Source of the DNA: Acidilobaceae archaeon
GTDB taxonomy: Archaea; Thermoproteota; Thermoprotei_A; Sulfolobales; Acidilobaceae
Assembly: GCA_026995555.1 (NCBI GenBank)
Contig: JALWOJ010000168.1
Location: 19,416 to 52,132, forward strand
Reading direction: 5' to 3'
DNA: 32,717 nucleotides
Shown: positions 23,775 to 24,078 of the stretch, in pieces
How the letters are laid out: every line of letters starts with the position of its first letter
Position numbering within the stretch: the first letter of the stretch is position 1
Translations under genes and position numbers: made by a program
Notes under the pieces: generated by a model
What the model was told of the DNA's origin: nothing
Seen by the model: only the letters and a program-made list of their open reading frames with translations
Databases searched by the model: none

Positions 23775-23887
23775 AGATCACACCTCAAAATTAGACTTGT
23801 CTATGAGGGTTTATCTCCTTATATTGAAGGATGTAGAAAATGTTTAAAAGAGTTCAAGATCCAATTTCATCCATGGCGGGGTAACCT

Positions 23888-24056
23888 AGCGGGGTAGGGT
23901 AGCCTGGTAGCCCGCGGGAGGAGTGGGGCTTGGCCCCCTACCCGCGAAGCTCATAAGAGGCCCCCAGAAAGACCGACTGGGGGCGGCCTCGGAGACACAC
24001 CGAATAATTTCGGGTCGATCCCGAGGTCGGTGGTTCAAATCCACCCCCCGCTACCA
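23888..24056 (+). tRNA. Initiator tRNA-Met (CAT), interrupted by introns, CCA encoded
   Basis: The acceptor AGCGGGG (23888-23894) pairs with CCCCGCT (24046-24052); A1:U72 is the archaeal initiator mark. Other parts: D arm GGGT/GCCC, anticodon loop CTCATAA at 23950-23956 with CAT at 23952-23954, variable loop AGGTC, T arm GGTGG/CCACC with TTCAAAT, discriminator A and CCA at 24054-24056. The stem halves CGGG (23915-23918) and CCCG (24020-24023) are separated from the loop by extra sequence on both sides. About 92 bases must be removed, approximately 23919-23948 (30 bases) and 23957-24018 (62 bases). Both inserts fold into strong GC hairpins. Exact bulge-helix-bulge splice sites could not be fixed. 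Confidence 0.85.
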
Positions 24057-24078
24057 TGTGGGGGCCCCGCCGCCATGT

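What the first reader, a model, noticed from the sequence alone, without database searches (positions are those of the whole stretch)
23888..24056. Initiator tRNA-Met gene split by about 92 bases of intron on both sides of the anticodon loop
The acceptor, D, T and variable parts are canonical. The anticodon loop CTCATAA is separated from both anticodon-stem halves by inserts of about 30 and 62 bases, each able to fold into strong hairpins. The larger contains two hairpins (CCCCCAG/CTGGGGG and CCGAA/TTCGG) and an outer CCTCGG/CCGAGG pairing, so it may be two introns or one nested in another. A multiply interrupted initiator tRNA is uncommon.
Basis: partly seen in the sequence, partly recalled or inferred. 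Interest (0 to 1): 0.6.

Follow-up and report, generated by a model that had tools for sequence, protein, structure and literature searches.

The report
Initiator tRNA gene with three introns
In this archaeal genome the gene for the tRNA that starts every protein is interrupted by three small introns, two of which sit only two bases apart and must come out in a fixed order; the machinery is of a known kind, but the arrangement is unusually intricate.

Summary
In detail: an initiator tRNA-Met(CAU) gene lies at window 23888-24056 with 92 intervening bases. The split "30 + 62" is better read as three bulge-helix-bulge (BHB) introns: 30/31 (23919-23948, 30 nt), 37/38 (23956-23996, 41 nt) and 39/40 (23999-24019, 21 nt). 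They leave exons of 31, 7, 2 and 37 nt. The 39/40 intron's BHB uses sequence inside the 37/38 intron, so it must be excised first; the 37/38 motif is completed only after the other two leave. Among 115 linked genes the 39/40 intron never occurs without the 37/38 intron (11 of 33 against 0 of 82). The same 2-nt exon recurs in 17 genomes of three families; four relatives carry four introns, one more than the published maximum I found. Multi-intron archaeal tRNAs and order-dependent BHB motifs are already known, so this is a new, intricate member of a known kind. No RNA data were available, and the catalytic endonuclease subunit is missing from this assembly though present in all 20 relatives searched.

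The parts
23843..23849 (+). TTTAAAA, probable archaeal TATA box about 27 nt upstream of the leader stem
   Evidence: sequence and spacing only; inference
23875..23881 (+). leader strand GGCGGGG of an outer 7-bp leader/trailer stem
   Evidence: complementary to 24065-24071; stem kept in 79 of 103 genes with differing sequences
23888..23918 (+). exon 1, nt 1-30 (acceptor 5' strand, D arm, first four bases of the anticodon stem)
   Evidence: identical to uninterrupted initiator tRNAs of relatives
23919..23948 (+). intron 1, position 30/31, 30 nt
   Evidence: central helix CGCG:CGCG 4/4, cuts GG^A and AA^G, short inner helix, no outer helix; same AGG...CGCGAA borders in relatives
23949..23955 (+). 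exon 2, GCUCAUA, nt 31-37 with anticodon CAU
23956..23996 (+). intron 2, canonical position 37/38, 41 nt
   Evidence: central helix CUC:GAG plus A.G, cuts UA^A and AC^A, inner helix 6 bp, outer helix 5 bp only after introns 1 and 3 are gone
23997..23998 (+). exon 3, 2-nt exon A38 C39
   Evidence: the same AC dinucleotide sits between introns 37/38 and 39/40 in 16 other genomes
23999..24019 (+). intron 3, position 39/40, 21 nt
   Evidence: outer helix 9 bp including CCUCGG:CCGAGG, central helix GAC:GUC plus A.G, inner helix CCGAA:UUCGG, cuts AC^A and AU^C
24020..24056 (+). exon 4, nt 40-73 and encoded CCA
24065..24071 (+). trailer strand CCCCGCC of the outer stem
24072..24075 (+). GCCA directly after the outer stem, like an acceptor 3' end
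   Evidence: N-CCA after the stem in 57 of 103 genes against 0.3% in randomised trailers

Best explanation
It is the (apparently single-copy) initiator tRNA-Met(CAU) gene of an archaeon that probably belongs to the Desulfurococcales/Sulfolobales group. It carries three protein-spliced BHB introns at 30/31, 37/38 and 39/40. Shown from sequence: the three boundaries, the exact mature product, the BHB geometry, and the fact that the 39/40 motif needs intron-2 sequence as its 5' strand. Inferred: the heterotetrameric splicing endonuclease removes intron 3 first (in either order with the independent intron 1). That leaves the 2-nt exon AC next to CCCG, completes the anticodon-stem outer helix GGGG:CCCC, and so allows intron 2 to be removed last. 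Also inferred: the tRNA-splicing ligase then joins the exons.
For: Removing the three segments gives 77 nt identical to the uninterrupted initiator tRNA of G002 and, over the 5' 60 nt, to 10 intronless genes. A close comparison is G077, which reads GGCCTCGGAGAC|ACCCCGAGG where this gene reads GGCCTCGGAGAC|AC[21 nt]CCCGAGG. All 17 genes with the 39/40 intron keep AC^ and ^CCCGAGG; 16 have at least 3 of 4 central pairs (2 of 4 in G112), with pair changes GC/AU at one position and CG/UA/UG at another. Intron 3 occurs only with intron 2: 11 of 33 against 0 of 82 (the genomes are related, so the P value is indicative). If intron 2 is removed first, the intron-3 motif collapses from 3/4 central and 9 outer pairs to 1/4 and 0; folding agrees, outer-helix probability 0.99 at 37 C in the precursor, helix absent after intron-2 removal. 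The beta subunit of the splicing endonuclease is present.
Against: No RNA data. Introns 2 and 3 each have one A.G mismatch in the 4-bp central helix, and intron 1 has no outer helix, so all are relaxed motifs. Thermodynamic folding does not show the intron-2 BHB as the preferred structure after introns 1 and 3 are removed, although it also misfolds the mature D arm, so it is a weak test. The catalytic alpha subunit of the endonuclease was not found in this assembly, though it is in all 20 relatives searched, one of them in the same genus.
Confidence: 0.9

Rival explanations
1. Two introns only, as first drawn: about 30 nt at 31/32 and a single 62-nt intron at 37/38 or 38/39, giving A31 and U39 in the mature tRNA.
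For: The resulting 77-mer is also called tRNA-Met(CAT) by ARAGORN, and A31-U39 would pair.
Against: None of the relatives' intronless initiator genes has A31 or U39. The GG^A / AA^G borders at 30/31 fit the BHB rule exactly. Relatives lacking intron 3 join AC directly to CCCGAGG, and those with it carry 12-31 nt exactly there.
Confidence: 0.06
2. Nonfunctional gene: the inserts have ruined it and another initiator tRNA does the work.
For: The assembly is 90.6% complete in 221 contigs, so a second copy could be missed.
Against: Only one copy is found; the exons are letter-perfect; all three inserts keep splice motifs; most relatives show a single initiator gene.
Confidence: 0.03
3. The inserts are other elements (self-splicing introns or small RNAs) and not BHB introns.
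For: The inserts fold into strong hairpins.
Against: No Rfam group I, group II or other RNA family reaches its threshold in the window apart from tRNA-Ala; at 21-41 nt they are too short for ribozymes; the BHB borders are conserved.
Confidence: 0.01

Closest known systems
Multiple-intron-containing archaeal tRNA genes, such as Pyrobaculum calidifontis tRNA-Glu(UUC) and P. islandicum tRNA-Pro(UGG), three introns each (PMC4390854)
   Same: Three BHB introns in one tRNA, canonical plus non-canonical positions, lineage with the alpha2beta2-type endonuclease.
   Different: Here it is the initiator tRNA, outside Thermoproteales; all three introns fall within the anticodon arm; one exon is 2 nt. I could not read the primary 2007-2008 papers, so earlier 2-nt exons cannot be excluded.
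Order-dependent introns noted in tRNAscan-SE 2.0 (PMC8450103)
   Different: Here the dependence also shows as strict co-occurrence across relatives, with intron 3's 5' helix strand lying inside intron 2.
Permuted initiator tRNA-Met of Thermofilum pendens and split tRNAs of Desulfurococcales (PMC3218864)
   Same: Disrupted tRNA genes (the initiator in T. pendens) rebuilt through BHB motifs.
   Different: In the window all pieces are in order in one gene; nothing is permuted or split.
Box C/D-containing tRNA-Trp intron of archaea (PMC4090602)
   Same: An intron in a tRNA anticodon arm.
   Different: No matching RNA family reached threshold here.

Membership tests
Archaeal BHB tRNA intron (multi-intron tRNA gene) | Two 3-nt bulges separated by a 4-bp helix, cut after the second base of each bulge | tested here: met
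   Intron 1 4/4, introns 2 and 3 3/4 pairs with correct bulge registers; met in relaxed form
Archaeal BHB tRNA intron (multi-intron tRNA gene) | Removal yields a canonical tRNA | tested here: met
   77 nt identical to an uninterrupted orthologue; called tRNA-Met(CAT)
Archaeal BHB tRNA intron (multi-intron tRNA gene) | alpha2beta2 splicing endonuclease with broad specificity in the same genome | tested here: inconclusive
   Beta subunit found (L198, E 2.8e-25 to PDB 3p1z); alpha not found in this assembly but in all 20 relatives
Archaeal BHB tRNA intron (multi-intron tRNA gene) | Excised and exons joined in vivo, introns circularised | not testable with these tools
   No RNA data
Split (trans-spliced) or permuted tRNA | Pieces on separate transcripts or in changed order | tested here: not met
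   All four exons are contiguous and in order
Group I or II intron | Conserved ribozyme core | tested here: not met
   No Rfam match other than tRNA-Ala in the window; inserts 21-41 nt

The most novel reading that the evidence does not exclude
The window gene belongs to an order-wide, largely undescribed fragmentation of the initiator tRNA. A recurrent pair of introns flanks a 2-nt exon and is spliced in obligate order by exclusive pairing of one intron segment (CCUC[GG]), either with the 3' exon or with its own intron's 5' end. Four relatives (G115, G152, G153, G155) have four introns in one tRNA, beyond the published maximum of three that I could find. ORFs with LAGLIDADG-like motifs sit in some of the same intron sites. 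An initiator-specific leader/trailer stem ending in N-CCA surrounds the gene.
Probability: 0.5. Interest if true: 0.6.

Novelty: new member of a known kind. Interest (0 to 1): 0.42.

Why it matters
Initiation depends on one tRNA, yet this gene has three introns, one of whose splice motif is supplied by another intron. That is a natural test of how far the archaeal splicing endonuclease tolerates relaxed motifs and tiny exons. The relatives with 0 to 4 introns at the same four sites are a ready-made series for studying gain, homing and loss of tRNA introns. It also explains why tRNA finders miss or miscall the gene.

Tried and rejected
A single 62-nt BHB intron at 37/38: by eye only about 2 of 4 central pairs fit. 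A BHB around the whole tRNA from the flanking GGCGGGG/CCCCGCC: 4/4 outer pairs in only 22 of 79 genes and no consistent inner helix, so a plain leader/trailer stem is preferred. A free pairing search between leader and trailer with G-U allowed was uninformative because shuffles often reach 7-9 bp; a fixed-register test replaced it. MFE folding of splicing intermediates gave no clear intron-2 BHB. The same-genus genome G001 gave no initiator exon match and no match to the region. The one named-genome scan gave only relatives of the neighbouring deacetylase gene, so the organism is not identified beyond its group. The 2007 primary paper is not held.

Full report
What is there. Window 23888-24056 encodes an initiator tRNA-Met with the expected AGCGGGG/CCCCGCU acceptor stem, D arm, T arm, variable region, encoded CCA and anticodon loop CUCAUAA, interrupted by 92 bases. 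ARAGORN and Rfam do not report the unspliced gene, and in long-intron mode ARAGORN miscalls it tRNA-Asp. The precursor is much more structured than its shuffles (z = -5.96). The genome is 1.5 Mb in 221 contigs, 90.6% complete, and holds one copy of each half of this tRNA; none of the 31 tRNAs found by the Rfam model is an initiator.

How the boundaries were fixed. Initiator exons were located in relatives and the 3' halves of 132 genomes collected. Intronless genes give the mature sequence directly, always with G31 and C39 in the anticodon stem. The window gene gives exactly that sequence if three segments are removed: 23919-23948 (30/31, 30 nt), 23956-23996 (37/38, 41 nt) and 23999-24019 (39/40, 21 nt). 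The 77-nt product equals the uninterrupted gene of G002 letter for letter. The exons are 31, 7, 2 and 37 nt long (nt 1-30 in tRNA numbering include one extra D-loop base).

Splice motifs. With cuts after the second base of 3-nt bulges, intron 1 has a perfect CGCG:CGCG central helix; introns 2 and 3 have 3 of 4 central pairs with one A.G each; intron 3 has 9 outer and 5 inner pairs. These are relaxed motifs of the sort that alpha2beta2-type endonucleases are reported to accept (PMC4090602, PMC4033280). The beta subunit is present at L198, with best matches to PDB chains 3p1z_A and 3ajv_A (that these are the Aeropyrum pernix beta subunit is from memory). The alpha subunit was not detected in this assembly but is in all 20 relatives searched, including the same genus, so an assembly gap is the likely reason (inference).

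Order of splicing. Intron 3's 5' helix strand CCUCGGAGAC lies inside intron 2. If intron 2 went first, the intron-3 motif would fall from 3/4 central and 9 outer pairs to 1/4 and 0. Conversely the intron-2 motif gains its anticodon-stem outer helix (1 to 5 pairs) only once introns 1 and 3 are gone. Intron 1 does not depend on intron 2. Predicted order: 3 and 1, then 2. Across relatives intron 3 is found only with intron 2 (11 of 33 against 0 of 82; relatedness is not corrected). Folding supports intron 3 being ready in the precursor (outer helix 0.99, inner 0.98 at 37 C) but not intron 2 being ready afterwards; since the same program misfolds the mature D arm, I give this little weight.

Relatives. 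The 39/40 intron with its AC exon is seen in 17 genomes of families f1, f2 and f9, with intron lengths of 12 to 31 nt and differing inner helices; central pairs vary with compensation. Of 108 complete initiator genes, 66 have no intron at the four sites, 26 one, 6 two, 6 three and 4 four. The four-intron genes (G115, G152, G153, G155) add one in the T loop (59/60). Reviews state a maximum of three (PMC4033280, PMC8450103, PMC4390854). Some relatives' introns at the same sites are 1.2-1.4 kb and hold ORFs of 329-391 aa; two have a LAGLIDADG-like motif with sub-threshold Pfam matches. Homing followed by loss of the endonuclease gene is therefore a plausible origin for such introns (inference).

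What is known. Multi-intron tRNAs, relaxed BHBs and order-dependent introns are documented, the last explicitly in PMC8450103. A disrupted initiator gene is known in Thermofilum pendens, though permuted and not intron-split in this way (PMC3218864). What I did not find described is a 2-nt exon, four introns in one archaeal tRNA, or this set of positions in an initiator tRNA; the primary surveys are not in the library, so absence is weak evidence.

Verdict. A real, unusually intricate gene with an ordinary mechanism: a new member of a known kind, with the order-wide pattern the more interesting part.

Noticed in passing
window 23875-23881 with 24065-24075; relatives: A 7-bp leader/trailer stem encloses the initiator tRNA, starting 13 nt upstream, and its 3' strand is followed by N-CCA like a second acceptor end. 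In fixed register it is kept in 79 of 103 genes (10% in randomised trailers) with 15 different strand pairs, stem plus NCCA in 57 (0.3% expected). No such stem was evident for 29 other tRNAs of this genome by eye.
   Followed up: partly
L069 (5' piece, G048) and L106 (downstream piece, G048); also G085, G087, G089, G160, G162: Apparent trans-split initiator tRNA: the 5' piece trailer GCCCGCCGTCCCCA is complementary over 14 bases to the leader of a downstream piece on the other strand. A second break in the T loop without a 3' piece nearby suggests a tri-split gene in some.
   Followed up: partly
L088 211-1200 (-), L101 238-1413 (-), L105 266-1417 (+): ORFs of 329-391 aa inside initiator tRNA introns; L101 and L105 have LAGLIDADG-like motifs with Pfam matches below the curated cut-off.
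   Followed up: partly
G000 assembly: The catalytic alpha subunit of the tRNA splicing endonuclease (TIGR00324) is not found, although all 20 relatives have it.
   Followed up: partly
L113 (G098), L092 (G093): A further intron position in the initiator T stem (TCCAC^AAGCCG...GGGGAG^CCCCCGCTA), not seen in the window gene.
   Followed up: no
L178, L177, L182, L197: Other tRNA genes of this genome appear to carry single introns, including a CAU-anticodon tRNA that ARAGORN labels tRNA-Ser(CGA).
   Followed up: no
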